Origin: Cylindrobasidium torrendii FP15055 ss-10
Taxonomy: Eukaryota; Basidiomycota; Agaricomycetes; Agaricales; Physalacriaceae
Length of the DNA: 27,444 bases
Assembly: GCA_000934385.1 (NCBI GenBank)
Contig: KN880728.1
Location: 1-27,444 of the forward strand
Direction: 5' to 3'
In this document: positions 1,022 through 24,816 of the stretch, piece after piece
How positions within the stretch are numbered: position 1 is the first letter of the stretch
Layout: each line of letters opens with the position of its first letter
Program-made: the position numbers and the translations under genes
The notes under the pieces: generated by a model
Seen by the model: only the letters and a program-made list of their open reading frames with translations
The model's database searches: none
What the model was told of the DNA's origin: nothing

Positions 1022-2163
1022 ATGTTACTGTCCACAGGTGTTCAAGCGTGGGTCTGCGTCGATGGCGTCCGCTGCGAGGAATTCCAAGAAACAGTCAGTG
1101 AAAATGGACGCGATGTGACGTGCTGGATAGCGTCTGAGGCGGGAAAGGTGCGTCTGCAAAACCTTGCAATATTCTTCTTTCTGACCCCGCGCTTAGACGT
1201 TCTCGATACATTGGACCGACGTCCCGGTTGACCAGACCGCATATATGCTCACTATTGACGGGGCGTCCGTGGGAGGAGTATGCTGCAAAGATCCCAATGG
1301 GCGTCGGATAGAGAACACAATGACCGGGCGGCGTGTCGCGGCCACTGAAGAACGACCATTTATGTTCGCGCCAATAAAACAGTCTGGTATGTTGATATTC
1401 ATAGCTCTCCTGTAAGCTTGAACTCGCCGCAGATGATGAAAGTTTGCTCTTGAACTCTATCGAAGGCGTCGGCGAGATTAAAATCAAAACCTATACCGCG
1501 CACTTCACACCCACCCACCCGACCTACAAGCAGCCCGATGCTCAGAAGACCTTCCATGAGCGTATGAAGAAGGGCGTCGACCATCAAACATCGTGCGTCC
1601 TTCAAATGCACTGTACTTGTCCCTCGCCTCTCCTGACACTATTTAGATTCGGCGAGGCCAGGTATTCTCCCCCAACATCCGGTGTCTCGTACATCCCTAC
1701 ACAAATAGGGCCAATATATTCTCTTACCTTCAAATACCGTCCTCTGAGTGCGTGTGGTAATTGGAAGCTGGGTGGCACCCTACTAACAGTACCGCGTAGA
1801 TGTTCTGCAGGCTCACGGTATCGCGCCTCCACCCAAATTCGTAGACGTGAAACCAGAGAAGAAGCCAGTTGTGCATGACAGCGACTCGGAAGTTGAGATT
1901 ATTGAGGCAAAGCCCACGGTGCGCATCTGCTTCACGTTTAGAAGTTATTTCATTCATTACATTTCGCGAATAGACTTCAGTCAAGCGCGAACGCAAACGC
2001 AAGACCAGCAGCCCCGATGTAAGTTTGTACTTGGTTTCCTAATGCTTTCTCCGCTGACAAGAACTAGCCTAAAGTGAAGACCGAGAGTTCGCCTCAGCAC
2101 AAGAAAGTTAAAAGGGAACCTGTGAACTCAAAGAACGACGACATCATATATATTTCCGATTGA
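1022..2163 (+). CDS. DUF7918-type protein, copy 1 (tandem pair)
   Basis: Seven exons: 1022-1147, 1197-1386, 1433-1592, 1647-1747, 1800-1918, 1974-2018, 2068-2163 (278 aa). All introns are GT-AG, 46-55 nt, and phases match throughout. Residues 1-192 form a globular domain resembling the Agaricomycete DUF7918 family, with landmarks AWVCVDG, TCWIASEAGK, PFMFAPI, GVGEIKI, FHERMKKG and FKYRPL. The tail (193-278) is low-complexity and charged. It holds EVEIIE (223-228), three psi-K-x-E sites at K236, K251 and K262, a basic run KRERKRK that could be a nuclear localisation signal, and the C-terminal end DDIIYISD. No enzymatic motif is visible. The family has no established function to my knowledge; a nuclear, SUMO-linked role is inference. 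Exon lengths are identical to those of the neighbour at 2695. Confidence 0.85.
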
Positions 2164-2694
2164 CTAGGATTTGGGTGTGTCTGGATGATTTCTGGCTTTA
2201 GCTCCTTTGTTATGCACATAACTCGACGAGCATCTCTTCCAGTTCTGCGGGTTACAATGGCGCGAAGTTCGAAGCACGACAAGGCTCTGGTGAAACATGT
2301 GTGCGAGTATTGGAAGTCTATGTGCAGAGATTTGATTATCTCAAGCTGTCAAAGGACTAGCGTCTTTAGCCTCAGGCCCGTACAGCGTACAGTCTGCGAC
2401 GTCCTAATAGTATGTGACCGATCTGTTGACAACCAGTGTGGATTGCGCCCATTCCTTGCCGCGAAAAGCACTTTGGATTCTCATGTGTTTTTGAGGGGGA
2501 TTCCTATATCTTCTTCAGTAGGCCTGGTCGAACTCGAACTTAGCTTTGGTTTGGCTTTAAAAATCAAATGGCCTTGGGCAATGCCATCAACGGATCACGA
2601 CCGCTCTGCCGATTCCGGAGTGATCGGCATCCTGCCTTCTCCCATCACCACGCCCAATACCACCGAAAAGGGATAATTCGCGGCCCCGTGCAAC
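2164..2694 (+). other. spacer between tandem DUF7918-type genes
   Basis: This 531-bp stretch holds the 3' end of copy 1 and the promoter of copy 2. A 163-codon open frame from 2185 has no domain and no supporting context. The last 110 bp before 2695 resemble the upstream region of copy 1, including CGGATCAC, TGATCGGC and the leader CCCCGTGCAAC directly before the ATG. The duplicated unit therefore included the proximal promoter. Confidence 0.6.
2621..2628 (+). promoter_or_regulatory. TGATCGGC octamer upstream of DUF7918 copy 2
   Basis: The same octamer as upstream of copies 1 and 3, beginning 74 bp before the ATG at 2695. Confidence 0.35.
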
Positions 2695-3826
2695 ATGATA
2701 CTGCCTACCGGCCTTCAAGCATGGATCTGCGTCGACGGCGTTCGCTGCGAGGAATTCCAGGAAACAGTCAGTGAAAATGGACGCGATGTAACATGCTGGA
2801 TACCGTCCGAGGCAGGAAAGGCGCGTCTGCAAAACCTTGCAATATCCTGTTTTCTGACCCCCTACTCAGACGTTTACGGTACACTGGACCGATAGTCCAG
2901 GCCGCCAAACTGCATACGGACTCAGCATTGACGGCGCTCCTCGCGGAGGACGAGCCTGCGTGAACCCGACTGGTCGTCCAGTCAAATACACCAAGTCTGG
3001 AGAGCGTATCTCTGCCACCGCAAAACGACCTTATTTGTTCGCACCAATACAGCAATCCGGTATGATGACATTCACGGCTTTGCTCAAGTCTCACCTCGCC
3101 GCAGACGATGATGATTTGCTCTTGAACTCTATCGAAGGCGTTGGCGAAATCAAGATACAAGCTAATATGGCACGCTTCAGACCTAGCGCCCCGGTTTTCA
3201 GGGATGTCGGTGCTCAGAAGACATTCCACGAGCGTACGAAGAAGGGTATCGACCACCAAACCTCGTTCGTCTTCGTATCCTTTTTCCCTTGTCCATTTCG
3301 CCCTGAAGTTACCTAGATTTGGCGCTGCCAGGTATTCGCGTGCAAAATCTCTCGACACCTACATCCCCATACCATTAGGACCTCCATCCTGCCTCATATT
3401 CAAGTATCGTCCGATGAGTACGTAGAGTTTGAACGTTGGGCATCATCCAGCTAGAGGTGGCATACAGATGTTCTCCAGGCAAACGGCATCACTCCTCCAT
3501 CCAAATTCGTTGACGTGAAGCACGACAAGAAGCCTGAGATATACAATGGTGATTCGGAAGTCGAGATTATTGAGGTGAAGCCCAAGGTGCGTTACCGGGG
3601 TGTGAGTGTGATTTCATTCATTTATCCCGCGAACAGGTTTCAGTCAAGCGCGAGCGCAAACGAAAAGCCAGCAGCCCCGATGTGAGCTTGTCTCTAGCTT
3701 CTTACTTAGCCCTCCGCTGACACGAAATAGCCCTTAATAAAGGACGAGAGCTCGCCTCAGCACAAGAGAGTTAAGAGGGAACCTATGAACTCGAAGAACG
3801 ACGATATCATATACATCTCCGATTGA
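2695..3826 (+). CDS. DUF7918-type protein, copy 2 (tandem pair)
   Basis: Seven exons: 2695-2820, 2870-3059, 3105-3264, 3317-3417, 3468-3586, 3637-3681, 3731-3826 (278 aa). Every exon has exactly the same length as in copy 1, so this is a tandem duplicate. Exon 1 differs from copy 1 at only 5 of 42 residues, while exon 2 is far more diverged. Intron 1 (2821-2869) starts with GCGCGT where copy 1 has GTGCGT, so it must be spliced as a GC-AG intron; reading on does not restore the frame. The tail keeps EVEIIE, VKRE, the basic KRERKRK, IKDE in place of VKTE, a second VKRE and the end DDIIYISD. The function is unknown. If the GC donor is not spliced, the gene is broken after exon 1. Confidence 0.82.
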
Positions 3827-4382
3827 CGAGTCTTTGCCCGCCCTATCTGGCCGAGTCCGGTAGCTGTATGTGCTTGCAAAGACATAACGCAGATTGACGC
3901 TCGCCAGGCTTTTGCACACCAGCGCGCGCCCCGAGTCCTCTATTCTTTCCAGTACAGATCAATATCGAAACGTCCCTGCTTTCTTATGCAATTACTCAAT
4001 CACATACATGGCCTTTCCTCAGCTGTCGGTGCCACAACCTCCGAGTTATGTTGGAGGTTCCAATCTTGGCGCCGTGTTTTGAAGGTTTAGAATGGCATAG
4101 CAAGTCCGGGTGTTTGAGAGATGTTTTTCTTGACGTAAATGTTCCCAGGACACGGGGGGCAAGGACTGCGTTCGGCTAGCTATGTTTCGCACTGAGAAGT
4201 CGAATTGGAGCTTCCCTGCTAATCGAGATTTAGTCGCGGCTGAAGTTCATATAAGAGCCTGAGGTTGGCCACTTTCTGTGTTACGGTGACTGTCCCCTTG
4301 TTCTACCCTCACCATGGTCATAGGTGTACTGCGCGCTGTCGGCAGCCAGGTTCTCCTGCCTTTCTCAGGGTATCCAGTGATA
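3827..4382 (+). other. intergenic region before the membrane-protein gene
   Basis: No gene is visible in these 556 bp. A TATAAG sequence near 4250-4255 lies about 130 bp before the chosen start at 4383 and may be its TATA element. Open frames at 3894-4082 and 4265-4531 lack domains and conflict with the spliced model downstream. Confidence 0.5.
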
Positions 4383-6204
4383 ATGCCCTTCAAGAAACGT
4401 GCAATGGGGCCGATCATCTTTGTATTTTCGGTCGGTCTCCCTATCTTGACAACCAGAGATATCTGACTAGAAATGTAGATATCAACTCTCATCGGAATCG
4501 CAATATTCAACCTGCTTACTCAAGGGCATGAACTGACATCGTCGTACGTCGTACTCTTGGACCGTCTTCAGCCGCACCGTCTTACGCGCACACCCTACAG
4601 GACCGTCGTATTGCAGAAGTTCTATGGCGACAGAAGCCCTCTGAAGAACGAGAGCTCTACGACGACATGCCAATCTAGCTTGCTGGACGTGACCTCGAGT
4701 TACTATACACGCAGCGATACAGGCTCCAATCAGCGTATATCTCCCGGCGCATTCAAATGGACAATCAATGCATTCGACCCCGACGATGCGCTAGATACGG
4801 TACAGGGCGCCTACAGTGGCGAGCGCCTTTCATGCTTTGTATGTGGCTTCCGTGTAACTGACCGCTGTCCGCTGATGACCGTCAGGCTGGGAGCATGGGC
4901 CTGACATACTACTTCGTGGGAAACACGTACCTCTACGGGTAAGTGAATGCATAAACAGTCACCTCGGTTCTCACGACTTTGAAGCGTCTGCGCCAAGTGT
5001 GAGCTTATGGATCGCCAGGCCGCTACGTACGGCGGGGCATCGGGAATCAAGATCTTCGATATCTGTTCGAATTACAACAGACATTTTGACAAGTACGAGT
5101 TCCAGCGTGCCATGCAGGCTTCTTGCAATGCTTACGCACTTTATAGCTGGCCCGGGTTTACCAAGTCAGTGCAGAACAGAATCGACGGACTGATGGGGTA
5201 TGCCGTTTAGCAAATGCTGTATGCAGTAGCTAACCACCACATTGCGCACAGTGAATTGTCTACAAAGTATGAGGACCTCGCCTTCGCGCCAGGAGAGCTA
5301 CCCAGCGAAGCGTACGAGGACCCCTCCCCATCCATCATGAACCGAACAATCGAACCCAGCATGATAGAGTTCATCAACATCTGGATCGGCGACGTGAACT
5401 ACTTCAACAAGACGCGTCGGGATGGTTCCTCACCACCGCCCTGTCACAACAGCGAGTACTGTTCAAATGGGACGTACAATGTCGTCAAAACGAATGGCCA
5501 GCTCGATGAGAAGCATGAATACGATGACCTCAGCATGCTGTTCAATCTCACGGGAAGCCTGACTGACGACGGGCGTACACCGAGCGGGGTCTCCCTTCCA
5601 GTTTCCGGGGTCGGTTCCCTTCAACCTGAGAAAGCATTCGATGGGGATGTCAGTCGACTTCCGGGAGTCTTGCCAGACCTCTTTGATAACCTGTTCGCTC
5701 TTGTGGGATACCTTTTCGATGCCGCGCTTCACGATTTGGACGATAGGGCGCTTGCGACGTCGTTTATCTGTACAGAGCAGACGTCGAAGTGGAAGCCTGC
5801 GCTGTCCCTGCTTGCGGTTGTACTGGGTAACTCTCTGAGCGTGTTCAGTGTTGCGCTCACTGTGATGATTGCGGTATGGGATTTTCATCGCATGGTCAAA
5901 TTTGTATGCTGAATGGTATACACAGATAGCGGCATTCATCGATGGGAGACTGCGCCCTTCTCCGCCTCAAATCCCTCTAGTTTTGAGGAGAAGTAAACGG
6001 GGATCGGCAGATTCGACAACCCTTTCCGGGACACCAACAGAGGCATTATTTAGGAGCCATGACGAATGGAATCCCGATAAACTTTACTTTGGGCAGAAGG
6101 AGGATAGGGCTGCGCCAACCCGATTATCAGTGATGCCTCTGCTGGGGGAGTGGCCGAGGTCTGCTTCATCGCATAATTCAGGCGGGGCGGATGAATGGGC
6201 TTGA
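4383..6204 (+). CDS. two-pass membrane protein with large ectodomain, unknown function
   Basis: Six exons: 4383-4421, 4479-4838, 4886-4938, 4985-5197, 5252-5873, 5926-6204 (521 aa); introns are 46-57 nt and all phases agree. The start gives a short basic N-terminus (MPFKKRAMG) followed by a transmembrane segment at about 9-27, which is split by intron 1. Residues 28-402 look extracellular, with nine cysteines (including VCAKC and PPPCHNSEYC) and N-glycosylation sequons such as NES, NRT and NLT. A second transmembrane segment spans about 404-433, split by intron 5, followed by an 85-residue hydrophilic tail. Both termini are predicted cytosolic. It vaguely resembles the large family of uncharacterised two-pass membrane proteins in Agaricomycetes, but I recognise no named domain. 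Splicing intron 5 skips a TGA that would otherwise end the protein just after the second membrane segment. Confidence 0.75.
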
Positions 6205-6227
6205 GATATGTAGGGAGAATTTTGTGG

Positions 6228-6233
6228 AATAAA
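6228..6233 (+). terminator. AATAAA polyadenylation signal
   Basis: AATAAA starts 24 bp after the stop codon of the membrane-protein gene, in AT-rich sequence. It is a plausible 3'-end signal, though fungal signals are degenerate. Confidence 0.45.
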
Positions 6234-6870
6234 ATGTATGTATCTATTAATTTTTGTGCTTTACATCGAACACTTGATTTTGTACCTGGACTCTAGCGCT
6301 CAAGCTCGGAACGAGAGAAAACAGAGTATCATTCATACGGTAATACATACCTCTCCAATAAAACCTGATAAATATCACCTATGTGGTACAATGCGAACCC
6401 GATGAAACTTCAATGGAAGATCTCGATCATGAACAATGAATGTGAAGTATCACATGTGTTTGGGCAAATATCATTCTCACTACGCCCCAATCAGTACCAT
6501 CGTCGATATGTTTTGACCGGTGGTCCTTGGGTTCAACATATTTGCTGTCGGCGCTCAACGCCCTCTGAATGAACTATGACAGACAGATTCGCTGACTGCT
6601 GCTTATGATAACGCCACGCGTGACAACCCCTGCGAAATGTTATAATGTAATTTTTCAATCTCTGAGATTTTGTGCCTTTGAATCGCCCAAGGACCGTGCA
6701 ACTGTCCGATGAGCATGGGCAGGCCAGACACTATGTATCCTTTGAATACAGGGCAAAGCGAACTTTCGGAGACATTAAGATGTAGATGAGCGAGTACATT
6801 TGACGAGAACGTTTGGATTCTTTTGGGCGTAAGACTTAAGTAGCGAGTGTTTGTCTTTTGATCCGGTGCG

Positions 6871-6880
6871 AGCACGTGCT
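6871..6880. promoter_or_regulatory. E-box palindrome AGCACGTGCT
   Basis: A perfect 10-bp palindrome with a CACGTG core, ending 82 bp before the ATG at 6962. CACGTG is the usual target of fungal bHLH regulators. It is absent from the proximal upstream regions of the other DUF7918-type copies, so regulation may differ. Confidence 0.35.
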
Positions 6881-6896
6881 AGCTTCGGGGTCAGAC

Positions 6897-6904
6897 TGAT
6901 CGGC
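6897..6904 (+). promoter_or_regulatory. TGATCGGC octamer upstream of DUF7918 copy 3
   Basis: The same octamer as in front of copies 1 and 2, beginning 65 bp before the ATG at 6962. The flanks differ from the tandem pair, which makes chance inheritance less likely here. Confidence 0.4.
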
Positions 6905-6961
6905 GAGTCAGTTGATTCTTGCCACTTCGACCGCTTTCCATCGGACGGGACTCGCTGCAAA

Positions 6962-8080
6962 ATGCGCATTCACACTGGACTCGAAGCTTGGGTATCCATC
7001 GAAGGGGAACGCTGCGAAGAGTATGGACAGACACTCGCCGCCAACGGACGCGACGTTACATGCTGGATAGCCTCAGAGGCAGGCAAGGTGCGCTATACAC
7101 TCAGGACGATGAGACCAATTCTAAGCAGCTTGCAAGACCTTTTCTGTCCACTGGCAGGACAGACCAACCCAACAGATGGACTATGCACTCATTATCGACG
7201 GCGTTGACATTGGTGGCAAATGCTGCGTTAACCCGACCGGGCGTCTGGTGTCCATGGATATGACGGGGACGCGTATATCCGCCATAGAAGAGCAGCCTTT
7301 CATGTTCGCGCCAATTAGACAATCAGGCGCGTCTTTTTCCCGGCTCAAGACGTCGCAATGCTGACATTATTGCAGATGATGAGTCGTTGCTTCTCAACTC
7401 TGTCGAGGGCGTAGGTGAAATCCAAATCAAGACGGGGACCGCACGCTTCCAACCCGCTATTCGTACATATGCGCCTCCACCCTCAGGGAAAACATTCCAC
7501 GAACGCATGAAGAAGGGGATAGATCATCAAACATCGTATGTGTACAAGATCCAGCTTAGTTTTTGTTATTCAGGCCACTACTAGATTCGGGGCTGCAAAG
7601 TTAGTTGCTCAAGAAAGCGTCACAGCATACAGGCCTGTCCCTGTAGGCGTCCCCACCATGCTTACATTCAAATACCGACCACTAAGTGCGATTAATGCGA
7701 CCTCTCTGCCAAGCACTCTCTCATGCGTTACCAGATGTATTGCAAGCCAACGGCATAGCGCCCCGACCCAAGACTATTGAAACCAAACCTGTGGTTAAAC
7801 AACCTGCCATTGAAGACGATGATTCAGAGGTGGAAATAGTCGAAACCAAGCCCAAGGTATGTCACGTATCTTTCTATAATCCACTTTTTCTCATGGCTCG
7901 AATAGACCTCTGTCAAGCGCGAGCGCACAGACGTAGGCCTGCCGATGAATCTTTTTTTCAATCTTTCTTGACGCTTCACAGGTCGCTGCACAGCACGGAG
8001 GGTCTCCCGCGCGCAAGAAAGTGAAGAGGGAGGCTGCTCCGAAGATACCCAGCGACGATATCATATACATCTCAGATTAA
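6962..8080 (+). CDS. DUF7918-type protein, copy 3
   Basis: Seven exons: 6962-7087, 7137-7326, 7376-7535, 7585-7685, 7735-7856, 7906-7932, 7982-8080 (274 aa). Exons 1-4 have the same lengths as in the tandem pair; the tail exons differ by small indels. The globular part keeps GLEAWVSIEG, TCWIASEAGK, PFMFAPI, GVGEIQI, FHERMKKG and FKYRPL. Intron 1 ends in AAG. Intron 2 (7327-7375) begins GCGCGT and needs GC-AG splicing; the nearby GT at 7331 would break the frame. The tail has EVEIVE, VKRE twice and DDIIYISD. The long basic run of copies 1 and 2 is shortened in exon 6, but a KKVKRE stretch remains. The function is unknown; a nuclear role is inferred from tail composition only. Confidence 0.82.
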
Positions 8081-8381
8081 TCGACACCCATTTAGGAGGA
8101 GGGGACATTTCCCTTCACTGCTTATTATTTCTACTATTTTACCACATACATGTAAGTGGACGACGACCTTCTCTCATCCGGTTTTTTATACCCGTACTGT
8201 ACTCATCTAACACAATCTAAAGACAGCTTCTATAGAACTCGAAATGTGATAATGATACACTGTTGTTCCGCCATGGCAAAGCTTAGGATCCCACTGAGGC
8301 CAAAATTCAGATGCAAGGCGTGACATTCGTGTAAGGGTAATAATGAAGTCGTGCTACTAATACTAGGAAGAGGGAGGTTGT
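8081..8381. other. convergent intergenic region
   Basis: About 300 bp between the stop of DUF7918 copy 3 and the stop of the secreted-protein gene on the other strand. It is AT-rich and should hold both 3' ends. I see no further gene. Confidence 0.6.
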
Positions 8382-8940
8382 TTAGTTGAACTAAGGATGT
8401 CAGATGGTTAGTCGTTTGAACATTATACTTGTACATATGGGACTCACGCAGTCGCCGCAAGCCGCACGGTCAGCCATGCAGACAGTGCCAGAGTCGGTGA
8501 CCTCGACGCGTCCATTGACAGTGCCCTTCGACTCCGAGCGGCAGCCCAGGATCTGTCCAACGGCAGTATGGACGTCCTCCCCTGCAGCGAAAGTGAGTAA
8601 CTTGTTGCAGATAGCGAGTGCAAGGACAAGACATACAAAGCGGGGACCTCCAGGAGGTGTAGACGCAGCACTTGCCGTAGCAAGTCGGGTTATACTCGAG
8701 CGTGGTACCGGAGTGGCAGGTCGCGCCCCAGGTCGCGTCCTGGTAGTACGGCCAGTTGTCAAAGAGGTGCTGGCAGTCGGACAGCGTTGCGTCTCCAGCG
8801 ACGCCGCACTCAGGCTTGTTCGCGTTGTTGGTTTGGCGCGCGCCGATGCTGGTGGCGTTGGTGAACTGGATAGAGCTTGGCGCTGCAACGGCAGAAGAGA
8901 CGAGCACGAAGAGGGCAGCGAAAGAAGTGAAGGTCTTCAT
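8382..8940 (-). CDS. small secreted cysteine-rich protein
   Basis: Three exons on the minus strand: 8940-8637, 8581-8448 and a 9-nt last exon 8390-8382 (Phe-Asn-stop); 148 aa. The donors are GTATGT and GTGAGT. Residues 1-19 are a clear signal peptide ending SSAVA. The mature protein has ten cysteines: C45, C56, C75, C87, C91, C92, C115, C136, C143 and C146. Landmarks are TLSDC, KCCVY, GTVNG and CGDC. The tiny last exon completes CGDCF, which matches CGDCFDD in the divergent neighbour, and this decided the model. Even cysteine number and small size suggest a disulfide-stabilised extracellular protein. The pattern is distantly reminiscent of Hce2/Ecp2-like secreted proteins, but I cannot assign it. 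A TATA box lies 97 bp upstream. Confidence 0.78.
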
Positions 8941-9036
8941 GGCTGAGGTGGTGCTTCAAGAATGAATAAAAGGTAGAGCTGGTGAAGATGAAGGATGAAG
9001 AGGCTCTGAAGTCCTACCATCGGGGATCCCAAGGTC

Positions 9037-9042
9037 TTTATA
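9037..9042 (-). promoter_or_regulatory. TATA box of the minus-strand secreted-protein gene
   Basis: Read on the minus strand the sequence is TATAAA, 97 bp before the ATG at 8940, a usual spacing in fungi. Confidence 0.6.
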
Positions 9043-9601
9043 CCTTCTGCGAGGACGCGCAAGGTGAGTCGTTGAGATTATTGTAACCACAGAGACACGC
9101 ACCCGGACAATTATTTACCATGACGGCTGTTTTGGGCTCGAATGCTGGTCTGCGCATGCCAAACATGCACAGAAAACAACGGATTTTCGGTGACGTTTCA
9201 AGCTTATTTCTTGCATGCAAGGATTCGGCTTTTTGACTGGTAAGTAGTTGACTTGTATTGGTAAATTGGAGGACGTGGCTGTAAACCAATATAGTAGACG
9301 ACTCCCACAAAGAAATTGTAGACGACTGTACCAGAGGCCACCTGCAACAAATGCGTTTGAGGCTACGGGAAGGGTCCCGAGAAAAGCCATCGCCGATCCA
9401 CTCTCGGCCCCATGTTCAAACAAAGCAAGCAAGTTACGTAAGAAAAATTGATATGAAACTCGTCGAAATGAAGCAAATGATGTGCGCAGCGCGCGCTTTC
9501 GCGACGACCGCGACGACGGGGCTCCACAAACGATGGAAACTTTCATCCGATAGGCCTGATGCTTTGCAACACGCTGAACTAGGCTGTGGACGCGACTGTG
9601 G

Positions 9602-9608
9602 TATAAAA
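9602..9608 (+). promoter_or_regulatory. TATA box of the plus-strand secreted-protein gene
   Basis: TATAAAA lies 130 bp before the ATG at 9732, followed by a CT-rich leader, the arrangement common in well-expressed fungal genes. Confidence 0.65.
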
Positions 9609-9731
9609 GCACTGCCAAATTCTGAGTCTAATCCCCAGCACCCAGCTTCCATCTTCTTTTCGACGCTGCTGCCTTATTCTTCTTATTCTTACTTCTTCAC
9701 TCCGCTCTTGGCATCTCTTTTCAACTTCACA

Positions 9732-10718
9732 ATGTTCGCCAAGTCTGCTTTACTTCTCGCCTCTGTTATGGGCATTCAAGCTGCGTCTCTGCCTGGTCTC
9801 CTTCCAGCGCGTGGATGGGACAACCACATTAGCTGTGGTACCACTCAAGATGCGAACCTCTCCGCTTGCCAGTCGCTCCTCGACAACTGGCAGCAGGACC
9901 TCCGCGACACCCTCCACTGCACCTACCACGCCACGGGCTCCGCCTGGAATGTCGCGTCCGTTGAAGGCTGTAAGTCCCCAATGTCTCCTGCTCGATTTCT
10001 GCTCACTTGTTCACAGGCTCGGTCTACATCACCAACATCAACGCTGAGTCGAGCGCCGTCAAGGAAGCCGTTCAGGCTCTTATGGGCTGCGCGGCTGTCG
10101 ACAAGGGCAAGGTCAACGGCCTCACCACCTTGAGCGATGGCTCTGGCGTCTGCATCGGTGGAAACGATGGCTGCGGCGAGTAAGTCCTTCTTTTGATTTC
10201 ACAGGAATTGCGTGCTCATTATTATCAGCTGTTTCGACGATGGGGACTTCAACCCTCCCAGGGCACGCGACGTTGTTGAGGTCGAGCCCCGCCAGAAAGC
10301 CGACATCGCGGGCAGCATTGCCGAGCTTGTCAACGCCATCCTCGGTGGACACTCTGCCGACGACACCGCGCGCGCGAACACCGTCAAGAACGTGCGCGAT
10401 GGGCTTGCGGACGAGTACAAGAGGAACGTCGTCGTCTGCCACACCGACCATGAGGCGCACTGGGACGGTGTTCAGGGCGTCGACTGGTACCACGAGCACT
10501 TTGAGGTCGATATCCAAATTGGTGGTACCATTGGCTATGAGGTGAGCACATTCTCGCACAGTAAGGAGCAGCGTCTAACTCTTTCATAGGTGTACGTCGC
10601 AAAGGGCGGAACCTTCAAGCGCAAGGGTGACGGAGGCGAGATCAACTGGGGCTGGAACGGTGTCCTTGCGAGGGACTCGGAGGAGAATGGTTCCAAGCTC
10701 ACCTTTGCTACTCGCTAG
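9732..10718 (+). CDS. secreted protein: cysteine-rich domain plus C-terminal domain
   Basis: Four exons: 9732-9969, 10017-10179, 10229-10541, 10590-10718 (280 aa). The signal peptide is about residues 1-17 (ending GIQA). Residues 30-140 are paralogous to the small secreted protein on the opposite strand: SCGTTQDANLSAC aligns with ECGVAGDATLSDC, and GVCI plus CGDCF match at the end. Two cysteines of the relative are serines here (S76, S81), leaving eight in this domain. Residues 150-280 form an added domain ending in GGTFKRKGDGGEINWGWNG and a final LTFATR. This resembles fungal secreted or stress-associated domains of the DUF7888 type, but I am unsure of the name. The start was chosen for the TATA box at 9602 and the signal peptide. 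The function is unknown. Confidence 0.78.
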
Positions 10719-11003
10719 ATCATGATGAGGATTTTACGACACGAGCTTACCTTTCACCTAATGCACACACGATTTATTATTTTTTCCTCACGTTGTCAAT
10801 TGCAGGCGCACAGTTCGCTGAGTGCGCTGTTGAACTGCACTTACCGTTGTCCCTTCAAGATGTGAGGCTCCTCGTGCTACTTCTGTTAGTAGAAGCTATC
10901 AAAGTGCATAGGTCAAATAGTATACAGCAGATCAACTGCAAACACTAGCACCGGGCTACGAAAAACGAACATACATACATAGGTTTTGCTAATGAGCTAC
11001 AGT

Positions 11004-12596
11004 TCAATGATTTCTTACCCTCAAGCACCGCTTGACATAGACCTCCATCGCCTCACCGAAATGCGCCGGACCCACGGTCATTTCCACTTCCAAGCCACCT
11101 CCCAAAGCACGCAAGGTACTCCCAGCGACATGAATAGCATCACCGAGAACGTCCCAACGCTTATGAATCGGTACGTCCTCGGGCGGTGCACACGAGCACT
11201 CCCTTCCCGACCGAATGGCATAGAATGCTGTCGGGCACATGCGGTCCTTTAACTCGACATGCAGTATGAGCTTCTGGAGACGGCAGTTGGACCTAGCGGT
11301 ATGTGCGAGGTAGTACAGAATATCGGTGACCCAAGCGATATGGGTGGGGTCTGGACGGACAGCGACAACACGACGAGAAGCAGCATCGTGCTCATCGAAC
11401 ACCTTGATGATAACATGAAGCTCGGGAATCTGCGAGACGTCGAGGATACGGATGTCGCAGAAGCGGGATACTAGCAGCGAAGGCGCTCTTCTGTGTCGTA
11501 ACCTAGACTTGGAAGAGAATACGCGTGTGACTGCCTTGCGCAACGGAGCCCTGGGAGGTCTTGGGTGTACTGGTTCATCCTCTGAATTTAATCGTCAGCC
11601 GTCGAGCACAGGATAAGGATGCTTGAACATGCCTTCGACATTTCCAGGAGTGGCGCCTACCAGCTTCACTTTCTGCAGCGTCGGCCCGCACTTACTTACC
11701 AGATCCTGTATTTTGCTCACCGTCTTCGCGTGCATGTCCTGCGCGTCTCTGTACTCCACAACCAGCACTCCCACGTTGGGTAGGACGACCGTATCGCATA
11801 AAAGAAAGTCCAAGAGTAGAAAATCACTCGTGTGCTCCAACGAGAGGGAGAGATACGACGCAGACACCTTGAACGTACTGCGCCTTGGGACATGAACAAC
11901 ACCGCAGAAGGTCGCCTTTGCACGCTTGTTCCCTACATCGAACGTCTCCATATCATACAGCTTGTCCTTCACTTGAACATCCTCGACCATATTACGCTGG
12001 AGTCTTAGGACTTCCAAACCCAGCCGCGGCACCAGCGCCAGCACCCTGCCGTATTGCGAAAGCGCGCGGAATACGCAGTCACGCAACGTCAGGCAGGTGA
12101 TGGTGCTATGACCGATGCCGTCGAGGAATGCCCCGAGCACGCTGTCTGCGGTGTGGAGAAAACTGGTGTCGACGAGCAGACTCTTGAGCTTCTTCATCCG
12201 CGGAAGACACCAGGTCCCGATGCGCATTATGCACTGTCCACAGCTGCAGTTCCCGCGATATTCGAGGGTCTGGGTGAAGAGGAGAGGGTCGCCGAGGGTT
12301 ATCGATGCGCTTGGAGCCACATCGATGAGCTTCTTCATCGTGTCGCACCTCAGGCTGAGGCGCCGAAACAATCGATGGCGCGTGTGCGCAAGGAGAGGGC
12401 GGCCAGCAATGGAGAGTGCTTGCAGAGATTTGCCCGACACGTCTTCGCTGGCATAGGAAATAATTCGTGCAAGTACCCTTGTCGGAATGAACGTTGAATG
12501 CGTAGAGGACGCAAAAGATTGGGCTGAGGCCATGGAAGAAAAAGTGAGACAGGACGACGCATCAGGCGCGGTCAGAAGATGACGGAGGGAAGACAT
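11004..12596 (-). CDS. F-box-like protein interrupted by an in-frame TGA
   Basis: From the ATG at 12596 the frame runs 333 codons to a TGA at 11597-11595, then continues in the same frame for 196 more codons to 11004. The N-terminal part has an F-box-like segment (IPTRVLARIISYASEDVSGK and on to RLFRRLSL), then leucine-rich sequence, as in Agaricomycete F-box proteins that recruit substrates to SCF ubiquitin ligases. The second part (RHRRAPSLLVSRFCDIRILD and on) looks like the natural continuation. Explanations are a recent nonsense mutation, readthrough (the context is TGA-C), or a 102-nt frame-preserving intron at 11609-11508 (GTGCTC donor, CCAAG acceptor) that would remove the stop; that intron has no good branch site. 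A frame-compatible ATG 23 codons upstream (12665) is possible. The gene is convergent with the secreted-protein gene. Confidence 0.65.
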
Positions 12597-13538
12597 AGAC
12601 CGGCTATGTTGGTATGTATGTGTAGAGAAGGAGAAGAGAAAGAAAGAAGGTGAGGGCACTGCCAATCGTTGCAGAAACGAAAGAGAGAGCCTTAAGAAGT
12701 GCTTGATAGAACAGGCAGGCAGTATCCATCGGATATCATGCTGATGGTGGCGAGAGGAGCTCGGTTGGCGAGGCTGGCGCTAAATGGATTGAGGGTAGCC
12801 TAGTAGTAGTAGTTCACGTGCCAGTCAATACCAATTTCAATTAAGCCGCTATGAAGTGCACACTGCGGACTGGCTTTCCGTGTCTAGCCTTCAAGTCCTT
12901 ACTGCTCAGTTGAGTTATCGAGGTTTGATAGATTCCCGAACTGCTACATTTAGCCAATCAAACTTCCCTTTTTTCGGTCACGTCCACTCTCTGACCATCA
13001 GTACTGCAGCTTGAGGCGTCTATTGGGTTGTTGCTGATATACCGAGAGTGCGATGTGTCGAAGGGGTATAGGGAGAGCGGAGTATGTGTCGTGTAGCACA
13101 GTGATGAAGAGTTTTCGAGACCTGCAGCATGTGCATGAACATGCATACGAAGGAGCCGCTACTGCGATTCCGACTACTACTGTAGTACTTACGCTGAGAG
13201 TGATCGTCAAAGATAGCAGCTGAGCAACGTTGCCTCTCATAAGCGATGTTTTGGGACTCAGAAAAAGGCTACACCGGGCATTAGTCGACATGAAGAAAAC
13301 GAAGTCTCTTCGAGTTTGTGTCTTTGTGTTGTCGACCACATGGGGCATACCTAGGAAACGCCTAGTATGCTGCGCAGTGCAAAAACAAGTATTAGTATGT
13401 GCAGATAGCTATGTTACATCAACTCCATTGAGTACCAATTAAGACCAGAGTGCACTTACATCAAGTAACTTGGATATAATAATACCATACCCGTTCGTTA
13501 AATAAGGAATAGAGGACTACATAACGTACTATCAATAC
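12597..13538. other. intergenic region between F-box-like gene and DUF7918 copy 4
   Basis: About 940 bp with no supportable gene. The part next to 12596 is purine-rich on the plus strand, that is a CT-rich leader for the minus-strand F-box-like gene. Open frames at 12998-13348 and 12958-13146 overlap in different frames and show no domain. A downstream exon of DUF7918 copy 4 could lie here (see the finding at 13529-13541). Confidence 0.5.
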
Positions 13539-14712
13539 TTACAACATCCAAGTCAAATCTATCACTTCAGCTTCACGCTTCACGCGTCGTTCGGCCGTCT
13601 CTTTCTTGATGCGCGGCTTGATGTCCTGGGACTGCAACAAGGGAGTCAATCAAGGGCTTGGAACGGGCAAGAACAGCAATAAACCTGTGATGCGACGACA
13701 GCTCTGCCTTTCTTTTCTCTCTTTACAGGCTAAAAAGTATGAGTGCTGATGAACAACAACTAAACTTGACTTCTCACCTTCACGTCTGGCTCAATAATAA
13801 TCACTTCGTCGTCCGAGTCGATGCTGTCGACAGGCGCGGGCGGCGGAGGTCGCGGAGCAATTCCATTTGCCTGCAGGACCGCTAATTTCATCGTGAGCAT
13901 AGGTACAAGTAGGATGAGATACTTGTGTGCAACTCACCTAGTGGTCGATATTTGAACGTGAGCTCCATGGGCTCTCCAATACGTCGTCGCGTACGCCAGC
14001 GCACCGGATCCATGCGCTTACGATCATGGAAGGCATTGCCATACCTATCAATGCATAAGTCGTGGATATGTCTATCGGAAGCCACGCTGGACGCACGTAG
14101 TCTGATGGTCAATGCCTTTTTTCAGGCGCTCATGGAAAGCTCTAGGAGGCTGAGGCGCGTCAAAGTCGTATTTGAAACTGGCCTTCCTGCGCTCCTTTGT
14201 ATACTCGGTGCGCCAGGCTCGAATGGTGATGTCCCCAATATCTTGTGGAAGGTCGAGCAACGCAGCTTCGTCGTCTACGCACATGATCCCTTAGCATGCC
14301 GAACACATACCAAGGGGCAAACATGGTTTAGCGCACCAGTCTTGGAAACGGGCGTGAACATCAGTGGTCGCCTTTTCGTTTCGGATATTCTCTTGCCAAC
14401 CACGAGCCAATTCAAACGATGGTCTACCTCGGAGGGGACTACTTTCGTGGCGCTGACAAGGTTTCCATCCACGACAACTTCATAGTAGAAGGACGCTCGA
14501 GGAATATCTTCAACGCGGACTTCATATTTCTAGTATCTGCTGTCAGCTAGGGCGTATTTCAACGAGATGGAACCGGGGGCGCGTACTTTTCCAGCTTGAG
14601 ATGCGACCCAACACGTCGCATGGTGTCCACCCCCCGAAAGCGTATAGCCATATTCTTCGCACTCCTCGCCGCCCACAATGATTGTGCCACGGACGTTCTC
14701 GGAAATTCTCAT
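13539..14712 (-). CDS. DUF7918-type protein, copy 4 (divergent, VIDLT tail)
   Basis: Seven exons on the minus strand: 14712-14587, 14529-14337, 14274-14097, 14044-13938, 13881-13778, 13729-13685, 13631-13539 (281 aa). Exon 1 (126 nt) and exon 6 (45 nt) keep the lengths seen in the tandem pair. Globular landmarks are ECEEYGYTLSG, TCWVASQAGK, RPLMFTPV, FHERLKKG and LTFKYRPL. The sequence is strongly diverged from the three plus-strand copies, and the N-terminal AWV motif is lost. The tail has EVIIIE (227-232), VKRE (K239), IKKE (K260), VKRE (K269) and ends AEVIDLTWML. VIDLT is the textbook core of SUMO-interacting motifs, which supports the same reading of the other copies. The final TTG-TAA overlaps a perfect GTAAGT donor, so the true C-terminus may differ. 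Confidence 0.82.
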
Positions 14713-15065: not shown

Positions 15066-16320
15066 TTAGCAGCTCCATGATCCCTAAAGTCTCGGGATGA
15101 GCAAGCAATGGTCATGGCAGTATGAGAGACACATACACTCTCGGGGGAGCCGACATTCTGGTAGGGTTGGTAGCCAAGGCATTCAGCGACAGTGACGAGC
15201 TGGTATCCGGCGCTGGTGAGGACCTGGAGGGCGTGGGGCAGCACGTCGTACGCGGTCGAGGCTGTAACAACATGAGCTGGTGATGATACACCGTGTGGGA
15301 AATGTGCTCACAGTAGGTCTCGTGGTTCAAAGCAAGGAGGTTGGATGGGTGGCTGGACACAAATTGGTCATAGCGAGACTTGCTGTCCGCTGCAGATGCT
15401 CCAACAGAGTCACCGGAGCTAGAGACGAGGACGTTAGAAAGTCAGGACGGGTAAAATGGACGAGACGCACTCAAAGTCCCAAATAACCACCTTTTGGCCA
15501 CGCACAGCAGACGCGGCGAGAACATTGTCGTTATAGTTGCCATACGCTGGAAGGAAATTGAATGGATAGGCAGATACAAACAGGAAACTGGCACGTACGA
15601 GGACGCATGAAAGCGGGGGTGACGCCGACAATACGCTGGAGTGCCTCTGCAGGAAGGTCAATACACCATCTGCTAGCGCGAGGCAGTACTCACGTTCAAC
15701 GCGCCACATCTCATCGTGAACTAGAACAATTTGTTAGGAGGAGCCGGGATAGATGTCGAGGAAGTGCACCTTGATCCCACGACAGGGTGCTCAGGTCCTT
15801 GTGCGACCAAGTATGCGAACCGAGCTGCATGCCAGAGTTGTACGCGAACTGGATGCCGCTCCTGATGTCGTTGTCGTAGATGCACTTGTCTAGGGAAAAT
15901 GTTGGTGGGTGGAAGATGGTTTCGACGAGTACCACGTACAGTTGTTTCCATCTGGAAAATGAGTGAGCAAGTGAAGTAGAGGAATAGGATGGACACGCAC
16001 TGAAGAAGAACGTTGCCTTGGCTCCATAGTCATTGAGCTTGCCCACGATATCCCAACTAATAGACGCGTAAGTTCCGGGATGTTTGAGTTGGATCGTACA
16101 CACATGTAGTTGTAGGGACCGTCATCCTGTTCACTCTGTCAGCGTCGGACCCAAGGAAAGCAATGAAGGAACGCACAAAAGTCAGCGCAACCTGGTTGGG
16201 ATTGCGGCAGCTGGAGATGACCTCTGCCTGCTGGCGCCTCTCAGGCGCTTCGCCAGTTGGATGCGCGACGGCGGCGCCGGCGAGGAGGGCGACCGTGAGA
16301 TGGGCGAGGTTGAAAAGCAT
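15066..16320 (-). CDS. secreted polysaccharide (chitin) deacetylase, CE4 family
   Basis: Eleven exons on the minus strand: 16320-16177, 16126-16104, 16056-16001, 15951-15940, 15889-15770, 15720-15694, 15646-15599, 15546-15471, 15418-15312, 15261-15137, 15083-15066 (251 aa). A signal peptide covers about 1-19. All NodB-fold motifs are present: TFDDGP at 47-52 (catalytic base and metal aspartates), HTWSH at 104-108 (metal histidines), RPPYG at 142-146, WDFD at 166-169 and a late ALNHETY. It should remove acetyl groups from chitin or related polymers in the wall or medium (family knowledge). Exon 4 is a 12-nt microexon in the conserved TFFFNGNN segment; the last exon is 18 nt and encodes GSWSC. 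Without these, the conserved motifs would be lost. I see no carbohydrate-binding module or GPI signal. A TATA box lies at 16411-16416. Confidence 0.9.
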
Positions 16321-19935: not shown

Positions 19936-22900
19936 TCAGAAATCGCTCACTATACTATAGCTATCAAGCCATCCTGTGTTCCCCTTCTCCGCGCTACCGT
20001 CCGGAGCACGAACCCATACCCGATTAGGATACTCGCGTCGAGTGGACGTGTTCTCTGCAAGCTCTGATGGCACCCCAGTGAGTGACACCTTCCGTAGCGA
20101 AGCGTATCGCCCAAAAAGCATCTCAACAGTCGCCTGTTCAATCTGATCAACCCCGTCGTCCTTTGGATAGTCGCGTCTCTGCGGTCGGACGAGGAAGTAC
20201 TTGAACGGGAAGATGATGGTCTGGAGACCTGGCATCTCCTTAACAAGGTCGTCAAGAACAGTGGCCTGTTCGAGAGTTAAGTACAACTTCTGAAAAAACG
20301 TGTGTTACATACCAGGTCTTCATGACTGAACAGCATCCACTCTGTCCGACTCTCCAATTCGACTGAGCGCGCGCCGGGGAACATCCTGCCCAGGCTCCGC
20401 AAGACCTTCTGCATCCTCTCGACCCCAAGGTGTGACGATACGTGCCGCAGAGGCGACGATGTCGCACCATCCCCCTTGAGGCGGACAGCGAGCACGTCCG
20501 GGAGCACGGCGTACGAAACCGGATCGGCGTCAAGGGCATGATCCCAGCCAAACAGGTCCTTCTCGTGCAAGGCCACTTTCTCAGTCCCAGTAGGCAGCTG
20601 AGCGACTCGCCATCCGGACATGTCCAGCTGAACGAGCGATGGACAGGCAAGTTGCAAGTCGAGAGGCTGAGGAAAAGTTTGCTGTGCCACTCCAGACATT
20701 GGGATGTACAGATGCATATTGCGCAGACGAAGCCGTAGGCGCTCTACGTTGGGAAAGCATCGGTGCATCCACGCTTGCAGGTCGTGCGCTGGAAGGTTCG
20801 TCTGTAAGTCTGCTTGGCGGAGGTTAGGCAGAACCGGGCACTGGTCGAGGTTTTTCATGTCGTCAACTGAGAGATGGAGAGTGATGGACTGTAGAGTGTC
20901 TAGTCTGGGTTGAAGAAGCGCGGGAATGGGGATTTCGACCGTCTGTGTCTCAGTCGTTCCGGGTAAATCGTCCTCGTCCTCGTCTGAGTCGCGGCGGATG
21001 CTGAGTTTGCAGAGGAAGCCTTGTGTGTCCCAGGGCCTCGATTCGAGGAGCGAGTAAATGTTGTTCAAGGACATCCCTCTGTAATATGCGATGTACGAGA
21101 ATGACAGCTCGAGCTCCCTAAGGTGAGGGTACTGGCATGTGAGGAAGCTCACGAGCCGACAGAGACTTGTGCCGGAAAGCATCTTGCTTTCTTCCACTTG
21201 GAATTCAGGAACCTCGAGTATACTCGCTGGGAGAAGCATCGAGATTGTCGTCAGCGCAGATAACGCCTGCGCAAGCGGCGAAGCCAGAGGGAGGGCGTAC
21301 TCGCTGCTTCCGATCGATATCATGCTTTCTTCGCTGTGACTGGTCGGACAAAGAGGTAGTTCGCGCACGTGATGGCGTAGATCTGGACGAGCAAGTAGCA
21401 AATGCTGGAGTTTCAGGTATGAATCTCGTACACCGTCTTGACCATTGAAGATGGGCGACACCAAGTCAGAGGGTACAGGGGAGTCTCGCAGGTGTCGGGC
21501 ATTGCGCCAGCGAATGAGATTGTCTGGTTCGCGAAATATGGTGGGCAGACAGAGCGAATGGAAGACGGCACAAACACGACACAGTGACAAGGCATCGCTT
21601 GCAGTAAGGAATGATACAATCCAGGCAAGTAGCTCGACCGGTAGTGTTAAAAGCTGTGATGACTGGGGCATACGGGAGGCAAGAGAAATGCACCCCTGCT
21701 CGGCTTCCAAACACACTGGACTGGTGATAGTGTTGTAGATACCAGCGTTGATCTCTGCCCACGGTCTTGCATGGGCGGAAGAATCCGGCAAAAGTCCATC
21801 GTATATGTAGGTGTACCCGGTGTGCGGTCGGTCGTGCGAACGGCGAGGAGTCGAGTCAAAGGGAAATCCGAGCAGATCGAAGGCGCCCTGTACGCGTTCT
21901 TTGAGGGCATCCCCTGCGATCGTGCAGTACTTCTCCTCGCGCATATCTGAATCCACCTGTTCATTTCTCTCTACTGCTGTCCGCATCACAGCCCACCATG
22001 CAATGACAACATCGAGGCAGTGTTGCCGGTATTCTGCGCGAGCAACGGGATCACGCTCCTGGCGCTCCTCATCAGTCGCCGCCCTCCAGAACTCCGAGTG
22101 AATGGGATCTTGGTCTTGTGGGAACCATTCCGCATGGTTACTTGCGCCGTGATAACCTCCCCAAAATGGGTGTGGATACCTTGTATAGACGGTGTCTGCT
22201 GTGACGGAGCCTCCGACCACCGGCTCAACAGAGCAGAAGCCATACCAGGCAGGAAAGTTGGACAGCTTCCTGCACACCCCGTTCTCCAATGTTTCTCGTC
22301 CCACCTCGACAGCCTCGAGCACGCCAAGTAATATGTAGTAGGCGAGCGATTGCTGTACGTAGTTGTCAAGCACGGAGCGATACTGTCTACGGTGCGAGGA
22401 AACTAAAACGGGGTGGGATGTTATTCGAAATAGGCGCTGAGGGGTATCAATTTCACGTACGGTGGGCACTGGCTTGTGGTCCGCGAAGGTGTTCTAGTCG
22501 CACACCGCCATTTGATCGATGGGAATTGACTTGCTGAAGACGCGAAAAGGGTACTCGCGCCTGTTGTGCAAGATATACGAAGGCAGCTATGTTGGAAAAT
22601 GGGACATCGTCCCCAGTGAGTGCACGCAGAAATAAGAGTACGGGCTTGTACGAGTCGAATGCGACGTGCTCCCATCCGTGTCGTCTGTTGTAACGATCTA
22701 AAGGAGGGCCTGAAAATGCTGCTTCTGTCGTCCCTGCGAGAAATTCGGCACAAGATGGAATAAGGTTACTGGAACCAAAGAGGTTATTCTCATAAACACC
22801 AATGTCATGCCAGGCTTCAGAGTCGGCATCCGGTCCAGGCATGCATTCCAACAAACGAAGAGACCCGTTGTCAATTTCGTCAACAATGGACTCAGTGATA

Positions 22901-23293: not shown

Positions 23294-24816
23294 CTACAGC
23301 TCGTCATGTTGTATGAAATGAGGTAGCTTGAATCCTCCAGACCAGTGCTTACCGAGTAAGTTTTCCGGGTCGTATTTCTCCTTCACATCCCAATACCGCT
23401 GCAGATCCATTCCCTTGTAGGCATCCTGGTCACCCGACGCATAGTTCATGTAGATGAATGGCTTGACCATCTCAGTGTGCGTACTCACCCAGTCGACAAG
23501 ATCCCTCATATGATTGTCTGGGCTATACGAGTCAAATACAAACAAGGCAACTATGATTGACCGTTAGAGGCTCACTGTTGCCTAGATCATGGTGATGGCA
23601 CTCACGAAGGATAGGTTGTCCATCGGCGAACAAATGTCCCGGTAGAGGCTGAAAGCCGATGTTCCAAGTTCCAGCTTTGCCCGAATAAAGCTCCATTCCT
23701 TTGTCGAAAATGCGGCGCACAAAACGGGCGTCCGGCTTGAGCGTGAGCGTCATCCACTTGTGGTACTCTCCCTTCATCACACCATCCTGCGCAGCCCATG
23801 CCTTCCACACGTCCGATTTCTTCAGGCCCGGCGTGTTATTGAGGTTGTTGACTATGGGGTTTGCGATGGTCGGTAGCGGAACGTCTGCATGGGCGACACG
23901 CAACGCTATGGCAGATGGGCCTTCATTGGACATGAGAACGCACAGCCATTCCTTCATCCCATCCTCAAGTTTCGACGAAAGCTCCACAAGCTCGTCCAGC
24001 ACCGCATCGGCACCTGGCGAGTCCATAGCGAAGACCTGTACGCCTCCCCAGACATCGTCGTCCAGAGTTGTTTCCATCGTAATGCGAGTGACAATTCCAA
24101 AATTCGTGCTCCCGTATTTCAGAGCCCAAAAGAGGTCCGCGTTGTCAGACTCATTCGCGTGCACGATAGCACCAGACGAAAGAACGACTTCGTAGTCTGC
24201 TACTGTTGCACTGGAAAAGCTGTCCCCGGGGAACCCAACACCACCTGAGAGTATCATCAGCGACATAGATTATTGTTTAAGAACACATCATGCTGACCTC
24301 CGAGCAGGAACCCAGCGACGCCCACATCCATCGTTCGTCCGCCGCGCATGGTACGATTGTACCCTCCAAGGTACGTATACACATCGCCCCAGCGCAGCCC
24401 AGCGCCAAACGTGACCCGCTCTGTTGCCTCGTCGTACACAATGTCGTTGAACGCCTCCATGTCGATTGTGAATCCTGGGGCATCCACATTCGAGGACCCA
24501 GGCCATGGCATGTGCCCACCACACCGTACGGCAAACTGGAACTCGCAGGGCGCGTCAGAGAGCTTCAAGATGCTGGAGACGTCGGCCGCTGAGGTGGGAT
24601 GTACATAACAGGCGGGCTGCATTTGGGCTTGGTGCAGAGAGAAGTATGGTCTAGCCTCATAAGAAAGGCGCACGCCCATGTCGCCTATACGAGCACACTA
24701 TAAAAGATAAGCCTCAGAATGAAGAAGGATCGTGAGCAACAACATACACAGCTCGAGTCCGCCCATACCAAGCGTAATCCAGATGCCAGAAAGCTGCAAA
24801 GGAGAATGGATCTCAT
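23294..24816 (-). CDS. secreted FAD-linked oxidase, BBE/VAO-type
   Basis: Four exons on the minus strand: 24816-24748, 24697-24298, 24244-23606, 23550-23294 (454 aa); introns are 50, 53 and 55 nt. A signal peptide covers about 1-19. The FAD-binding PCMH part includes PACYVHPTSAADVSSIL, the RCGGH motif with H85 as probable covalent flavin attachment site, VTFGAGLRWGDVY and GRTMDVGVAGFLLGGG. The substrate domain follows, and the C-terminal BBE motif is present (FIYMNYASGDQD, KYDPENLLG). Family members oxidise alcohols, sugars or alkaloid-like compounds with release of H2O2; the substrate here cannot be told. The segment before PACYV is shorter than usual, and no second flavin-linking cysteine is evident. 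The gene is 226 bp upstream of, and in tandem with, the F-box gene. Confidence 0.88.

What the first reader, a model, noticed from the sequence alone, without database searches (positions are those of the whole stretch)
1022..14712. DUF7918-type proteins carry a conserved SUMO-like tail: repeated psi-K-x-E plus SUMO-interacting-like motifs
Seen: in all four copies the globular part is followed by a tail with an acidic/aliphatic motif (EVEIIE, EVEIIE, EVEIVE, EVIIIE), two or three psi-K-x-E sites (VKRE in every copy; VKTE, IKDE or IKKE at a second site in three), and a C-terminal aliphatic/acidic end (DDIIYISD in three copies, EVIDLT in the fourth). The residues change but the motif class is kept, for example VKTE to IKDE and IIYISD to VIDLT. 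Known: psi-K-x-E is the SUMO acceptor consensus, and [VI]-x-[VI]-[VI] or [VI]-[VI]-x-[VI/L] with acidic flanks is the SUMO-interacting motif. Inference: the family is a SUMO target and reader, perhaps a nuclear scaffold. I know of no description of this.
Basis: partly seen in the sequence, partly recalled or inferred. Interest (0 to 1): 0.78.

Follow-up and report, generated by a model that had tools for sequence, protein, structure and literature searches.

The report
SUMO-motif tail on mushroom DUF7918 proteins
An uncharacterised family of fungal proteins, four of whose genes lie in this window, carries a floppy tail whose motifs match both the attachment site and the docking site for the small protein tag SUMO, and those motifs are kept in many mushroom genera although the rest of the tail changes.

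Summary
The window (Cylindrobasidium torrendii) has four seven-exon DUF7918 genes; three spliced models equal deposited proteins. Each tail has an inner SIM-like core, 2-4 psi-K-x-E sites and a SIM-like end. The excess survives thinning to 30 tails; 36 of 65 proteins from a search scored on the folded domain alone carry both motifs by the stricter rule, and 18 of 27 named genera have such a tail. A lysine/arginine control separates SUMO site from nuclear localisation signal: E at +2 follows 116 of 207 psi-K but 7 of 83 psi-R. SUMO-pathway genes are present. One Suillus/Ganoderma clade lacks the tail. The domain is a confident beta-sandwich without a clear PDB relative; the tail is predicted disordered. 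Best reading: a SUMO substrate that also binds SUMO, by SIM-assisted conjugation. Binding, conjugation and a scaffold role are untested.

The parts
1022..2163 (+). DUF7918 gene, copy 1 (278 aa, 7 exons); identical to deposited CYLTODRAFT_426459
1847..1858 (+). copy 1 psi-K-x-E VKPE
1889..1906 (+). copy 1 inner SIM-like EVEIIE
1980..1991 (+). copy 1 psi-K-x-E VKRE
2074..2085 (+). copy 1 psi-K-x-E VKTE
2107..2118 (+). copy 1 psi-K-x-E VKRE (in KKVKREP)
2137..2160 (+). copy 1 C-terminal SIM-like DDIIYISD
2695..3826 (+). DUF7918 gene, copy 2 (278 aa, 7 exons); identical to deposited CYLTODRAFT_426460
3557..3574 (+). copy 2 inner SIM-like EVEIIE
3643..3654 (+). copy 2 psi-K-x-E VKRE
3737..3748 (+). 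copy 2 psi-K-x-E IKDE
3770..3781 (+). copy 2 psi-K-x-E VKRE (in KRVKREP)
3800..3823 (+). copy 2 C-terminal SIM-like DDIIYISD
6962..8080 (+). DUF7918 gene, copy 3 (274 aa, 7 exons); identical to deposited CYLTODRAFT_426462
7827..7844 (+). copy 3 inner SIM-like EVEIVE
7912..7923 (+). copy 3 psi-K-x-E VKRE
8021..8032 (+). copy 3 psi-K-x-E VKRE (in KKVKREA)
8054..8077 (+). copy 3 C-terminal SIM-like DDIIYISD
13539..14712 (-). DUF7918 gene, copy 4 (281 aa, 7 exons; my splice model, no deposited protein seen)
13790..13807 (-). copy 4 inner SIM-like EVIIIE
13715..13726 (-). copy 4 psi-K-x-E VKRE
13599..13610 (-). copy 4 psi-K-x-E IKKE
13572..13583 (-). copy 4 psi-K-x-E VKRE
13551..13568 (-). copy 4 C-terminal SIM EVIDLT

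Best explanation
DUF7918 proteins of mushroom-forming fungi are two-part proteins: a folded N-terminal beta-sandwich (about residues 1-200) of unknown ligand, and a disordered C-terminal SUMO tail. The tail combines lysines in the Ubc9 consensus psi-K-x-E, often inside a short basic stretch that can also serve as a nuclear localisation signal, with one or two SUMO-interacting motifs, the last mostly of the VIDLT class at or near the C-terminus, typically 5 to 15 residues after the last acceptor site. Proposed working: the tail brings the protein to the nucleus; the SIM holds the SUMO of a SUMO-Ubc9 thioester and so speeds conjugation of the nearby lysines (SIM-assisted conjugation in cis, as known for DAXX, USP25, BLM and TDG); the modified, SIM-bearing protein then joins or is recruited to other SUMO-modified assemblies, carrying its folded domain with it. 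Shown here: the motifs, their excess, lysine specificity, conservation across genera, predicted disorder, and presence of SUMO-pathway genes. Inferred: SUMO binding, conjugation, nuclear site, recruitment.
For: Motifs in all four copies. 71 tails: psi-K-x-E 116 sites in 61 tails, shuffled mean 12.3 (max 25 of 1000), reversed motif 13; [VIF][VI]D[LIM][TS] 49 against 0.2, reversed 0; 30 tails under 40% identity: 51 against 5.2 and 19 against 0.0. Search scored on the domain only: psi-K-x-E in 53 of 65, strict C-terminal SIM-like core in 37, both in 36; with a relaxed rule written after seeing the tails, 50 and 48. Both by the strict rule in 44 of 71 tails, in 18 of 27 named genera. E at +2 of psi-K 116/207 against +1 10/207 and +3 26/207; psi-R 7/83 (Fisher p 7e-15); K after neither aliphatic nor basic residue 22/252; thinned set 51/86 against 3/34. 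In [KR][KR][VIL]K, 42 of 45 have E at +2. x takes 16 different residues. SIM cores: D/E at -1 in 77%, S/T at +1 in 68%. Folded domains of the same proteins: E at +2 of psi-K in 6 of 145. Model of copy 1: blocks of residues 1-200 at pLDDT 91-98, from 221 on 56-61, no helix or strand after 197. Own genome: SUMO gene with diglycine end, Ubc9 exons 62-65% identical to the yeast query, MIZ finger, Ulp-like exons. VIDLT is the SIM of PIAS1 (PMC4907222, passages); its peptide binds SUMO2 at 16 uM (PMC3901395, passages). Cis SIM-assisted conjugation: PMC12751080 section 29.
Against: No binding or conjugation data. Even by the relaxed rule 8 of 70 tails have neither motif, 5 lack the C-terminal SIM and 2 lack psi-K-x-E. 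By the strict rule only 44 of 71 have both, and five of these (P0008, P0023, P0025, P0026, P0038) meet it by a neighbouring aliphatic core, not by the T[IV]DLT they end in; with [VIF][VI]D[LIM][TS] alone it is 34 of 71. The form [VI]-x-[VI]-[VI] is not clearly enriched (17 against 10.3), so the inner EVEII(V)E of copies 1-3 is weaker evidence than the C-terminal motif; inner SIM-like cores occur in 21 of 71 tails (shuffled 2.3). R is the commonest x (40 of 116), which the SUMO consensus alone does not ask for and which fits an overlapping NLS. Tails are homologous, so counts are not independent even after thinning. The SUMO gene was identified by weak hits (36% and 63%, E 6e-4 and 0.03) and by eye.
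Confidence: 0.72

Rival explanations
1. The tail is a nuclear localisation tail: KKVK is a c-Myc-like monopartite NLS, and IDLT/IYISD is a short beta-strand motif for some other nuclear partner; psi-K-x-E is a by-product.
For: 35 of 61 last psi-K-x-E sites follow K/R directly and R is x in 40 of 116; that KKVK fits an NLS is from recall.
Against: An NLS accepts R for K and asks for no E two places on: E at +2 is 116/207 after psi-K, 7/83 after psi-R, 11/153 after [KR]K; 26 of 61 last sites are not preceded by K/R. Does not explain the VIDLT class.
Confidence: 0.12
2. One reading: the tail binds SUMO without being modified, or is modified without binding; the second motif class serves something else.
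For: By the relaxed rule 5 of 70 have psi-K-x-E without C-terminal SIM and 2 the reverse.
Against: Both classes co-occur in 55 of 70 by the relaxed rule, 44 of 71 by the strict one.
Confidence: 0.11
3. The conserved tail is common descent without function, or low-complexity composition that throws up such tetrapeptides.
For: Tails are rich in K, E and D, about 9-10% each, and paralogues are related.
Against: Shuffled and reversed controls of the same composition, and the thinned set; psi, K and E kept while x varies.
Confidence: 0.02
4. The C-terminal strand folds back on the DUF7918 domain as a latch and never meets SUMO.
For: The domain is a beta-sandwich, and such folds can accept strands (inference).
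Against: In the full-length model no strand or helix is assigned after residue 197 and pLDDT from residue 221 on is 56-61; AlphaFold could miss a latch with a 70-row alignment.
Confidence: 0.03

Closest known systems
SIM-assisted SUMO substrates (DAXX, USP25, BLM, TDG, yeast Srs2)
   Same: SIM and acceptor lysines in one protein (PMC12751080 section 29)
   Different: No sequence relation tested; DUF7918 is a fungal family with another folded part; conjugation not shown
PIAS-family SIM (VIDLT)
   Same: Copy 4 and tails of 17 of 27 named genera carry a core of the VIDLT class near the C-terminus together with psi-K-x-E (PMC4907222 and PMC3901395, passages)
   Different: No MIZ/SP-RING finger reported in the four copies, only PF25534, so no sign of an E3 ligase
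PML/SP100 type SUMO-dependent nuclear assemblies
   Same: Several acceptor sites plus SIM per molecule; a number of tails of other genera also hold a short heptad-like stretch (by eye) that could raise valency
   Different: No other Pfam domain reported in the four copies; no localisation data
TEAD YAP-binding domain, UNC119/PDE-delta/RhoGDI sandwiches

Membership tests
Pfam DUF7918 (PF25534) | whole-protein score above the curated cut-off of 27 bits | tested here: met
   75.6, 55.8, 60.8 bits for copies 1-3, 55.4 for copy 4
SUMO substrate | psi-K-x-E in an accessible, disordered region | tested here: met
   2-4 sites per copy; copy 1 tail pLDDT 56-61 from residue 221; the VKPE of copy 1 at 209 lies in a block of 84; excess and lysine specificity in 71 tails
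SUMO substrate | covalent SUMO on the lysine | not testable with these tools
   needs a conjugation assay or proteomics
SIM-bearing SUMO reader | four-residue aliphatic core with acidic or phospho-acceptor flank in a disordered region | tested here: met
   IIYI with DD before and SD after, VIDL with E before and T after; over all 74 cores D/E 77% at -1, S/T 68% at +1
SIM-bearing SUMO reader | binding in the SUMO groove | not testable with these tools
   needs a binding assay or structure
SUMO E3 ligase (PIAS/Siz) | SP-RING (zf-MIZ) domain | tested here: not met
   only PF25534 reported in the four copies at E <= 0.01
PML-type SUMO scaffold | own oligomerisation module plus several SUMO sites and SIMs | tested here: inconclusive
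   sites and SIM-like motifs met; no helix of 4 or more residues after 197 in the copy 1 model; heptad-like stretches in other genera seen by eye only
TEAD YAP-binding-domain fold | clear structural match over the domain | tested here: inconclusive

The most novel reading that the evidence does not exclude
DUF7918 is a large, fast-changing family of SUMO-dependent nuclear scaffold or adaptor proteins of mushrooms, working like PML or SP100: the variable sandwich domain binds a target (an intruding element or a chromatin factor), and the multivalent SUMO-site/SIM tail gathers it into SUMO-rich bodies.
Probability: 0.2. Interest if true: 0.82.

Novelty: new member of a known kind. Interest (0 to 1): 0.62.

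Why it matters
DUF7918 genes are many (15 loci at E <= 0.01 in this genome, the window's four included), and no paper in the searched library names DUF7918 or PF25534. The tail gives a mechanistic handle on an orphan family: it points to a pathway (SUMO), to particular residues, and to a direct in vitro test. It also offers a natural contrast, a Suillus/Ganoderma clade with the domain and without the tail.

Tried and rejected
NLS-only reading: tested by the arginine control and set aside as sole explanation. Composition/chance: shuffles and reversed motifs. Intramolecular latch: not supported by the full-length model. Fold-based function: Foldseek and VIA-align 2 on two models gave only weak sandwich matches, led by TEAD; I saw no PIAS PINIT row among those shown, from which nothing follows. 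Profile search of PDB sequences: 5 rows, best E 0.09.

Tails of the other C. torrendii paralogues: my small splice predictor got copies 1 and 2 right in leave-one-out, missed the last intron of copies 3 and 4, and also disagreed with the deposited P0004, so I use only what lies in the open frame of an LQANG-like anchor. Of 15 fetched DUF7918 loci 5 had such an anchor by my pattern: 3 (L042 FIIISSDEEDERDD, L043 IIVISSDEEDDDD, L044 FIDLTEDDD) show an acidic SIM-like core, L051 (the P0004 locus) shows DVEIIE, L039 none that convinces. L041 shows VIEISDTEDED in the frame of its anchor. The other 9 stay unread. Runs of psi-K-x-E in raw frames of L041 and L050 are not placed in a gene model.

PF25534 searched as a family in the own genome found nothing, probably because introns cut the gene into short exons (the control rang nowhere either); protein queries worked. 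A pattern RTNATHGAYYTNACNTRR for [VI]IDLT before a stop gave 3 places against 1 for the pattern read backwards; the copy 4 match goes through TGG, which is no stop, so this search says only that the exact ending is not common. The C256 ubiquitin-like hit reads as a ubiquitin fusion, not SUMO (by eye). P0055 and P0056 may be mis-spliced models (P0055's sister P0042 has the full tail); not checked. Motif against non-motif identity between copies 1 and 2: 24 of 26 against 32 of 46 positions, too few to lean on.

Papers: searches; none held for DUF7918, PF25534 or IPR057678 (this last number is from recall). Passages of PMC12884345 on SUMO in filamentous fungi were seen and are not used as evidence.
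Full report
What is there. The window is from Cylindrobasidium torrendii FP15055: three proteins spliced from it are letter for letter in public sets. Four DUF7918 genes of seven exons each lie at 1022-2163, 2695-3826, 6962-8080 (+) and 13539-14712 (-), all above the PF25534 cut-off. In each, about 200 residues of domain are followed by a tail of some 70-80 residues.

Homologues. One search with copy 1 gave 11 proteins, one with an alignment 21, and a third, scored only on residues 1-202 of a family consensus so that the tail could not score the hits, gave 65. In all, 75 proteins plus copy 4. By the names in the listings they come from 28 named genera (27 among the 71 tails used, plus Lentinus, P0060), all basidiomycete except Emmonsiellopsis (P0021, an ascomycete; group names from recall). 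Tails are poorly alignable, yet read again and again KKVKREP, KRVKVE, KKVKQE, KKIKTE, VKAE, VKLE and end in VIDLT, FIDLT, IIDLT, TIDLTEDD. The ascomycete tail has VKRE, EVEI and IEVISLLDDD.

Chance tests. In 71 tails (76 less five with no anchor or a short tail), psi-K-x-E occurs 116 times in 61 tails; 1000 shuffles average 12.3 with a maximum of 25; the reversed motif occurs 13 times. [VIF][VI]D[LIM][TS] occurs 49 times against 0.2, reversed 0. The generic [VI][VI]x[VIL] occurs 74 times against 15.6 (reversed 23). [VI]x[VI][VI] is not clearly above chance, 17 against 10.3 with a maximum of 22. Thinned to under 40% identity, 30 tails give 51 against 5.2, and 19 against 0.0. In the 65 domain-search hits, 53 have psi-K-x-E, 37 a strict SIM-like core in the last 15 residues, 36 both; a relaxed rule made after looking gives 50 and 48. 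By the strict rule 44 of 71 tails have both, in 18 of 27 named genera; by the VIDLT-class core alone 34 of 71, in 17 of 27. Five of the 44 (Marasmius and Moniliophthora tails ending in T[IV]DLT) meet the strict rule only by a neighbouring aliphatic core.

SUMO site or nuclear localisation signal. The stretch KKVK also fits a c-Myc-like NLS (recalled). An NLS treats K and R alike and needs no E. E at +2 follows psi-K in 116 of 207 cases, psi-R in 7 of 83 (p 7e-15), [KR]K in 11 of 153, other K in 22 of 252; in the thinned set 51 of 86 against 3 of 34. At +1 and +3 E is 10 and 26 of 207. Within [KR][KR][VIL]K, 42 of 45 have the E. The residue before K given KxE is V, I or L in 116 of 149; x takes 16 residues, R in 40 of 116. 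In the folded domains of the same proteins E at +2 of psi-K is 6 of 145. So the class psi-K-x-E is kept, K itself is required, x is fairly free; an NLS may overlap it.

SIM. Over 74 cores, D/E stands at -1 in 77% and S/T at +1 in 68%, the kind of acidic or phospho-acceptor flank described for SIMs (PMC12751080, passages). VIDLT is the SIM of PIAS1 (PMC4907222, passages); a PIAS1 peptide binds SUMO2 with 16 uM (PMC3901395, passages). In 39 of 61 tails with a site the spacing from the last psi-K-x-E to a C-terminal core could be measured: 34 of 39 lie at 5 to 15 residues, the rest at 0, 0, 2, 3 and 36.

Machinery. The genome has a SUMO gene (contig 214; weak hits to yeast Smt3; read by eye: VKPE near its start, diglycine then TYA at its end), Ubc9 exons (contig 166; 62-65% to the yeast query), one MIZ finger and Ulp-like exons.

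Evolution. On a tree of 70 domains, 55 tails have both motifs by the relaxed rule, 5 only psi-K-x-E, 2 only SIM, 8 neither; six of the eight form one supported clade (100/99): three Suillus, two Ganoderma and one unnamed protein. This clade probably lost or never had the tail; the root is not fixed.

Mechanism. Most likely a SUMO substrate and reader with SIM-assisted conjugation in cis, as reviewed for TDG, DAXX, USP25, BLM and Srs2 (PMC12751080 section 29). Several sites and SIMs per molecule meet the condition that the same review states for SUMO-driven networks (passages). What the folded domain binds is unknown; a scaffold role is a proposal.

Noticed in passing
window 6962-8080 and 2695-3826: All six introns of copy 3 are exactly 49 nt; copy 2 intron 1 and copy 3 intron 2 start with GC instead of GT.
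   Followed up: no
G000 contigs 16, 17, 18, 41, 63, 164, 281, 299, 471 (and weaker 197): Eleven further DUF7918 loci in the genome at E <= 0.01 beside the window's four; contigs 41 and 63 hold two each, and 299 and 197 hold more at weaker E-values.
   Followed up: partly
window 8404-8940 (-) and 9731-10718 (+): Two genes that look like small secreted proteins and share a CQxLxDNW-like stretch, by eye.
   Followed up: no
window 20277-22469 (-), 15711-16103 (-), 24257-24679 (-): F-box-like protein, polysaccharide deacetylase exon and FAD-binding domain exon.
   Followed up: no
P0068, P0069, P0070, P0071, P0072, P0075: DUF7918 clade (Suillus, Ganoderma, one unnamed) with the domain but a quite different tail without the SUMO motifs; P0068 and P0069 pass the PF25534 cut-off.
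   Followed up: partly
P0005, P0006, P0010, P0012, P0022, P0024 and others: Between inner and outer SIM several tails of other genera hold a short heptad-like amphipathic stretch (ELERLRARVKELEAR type), not seen in the window copies; by eye.
   Followed up: no
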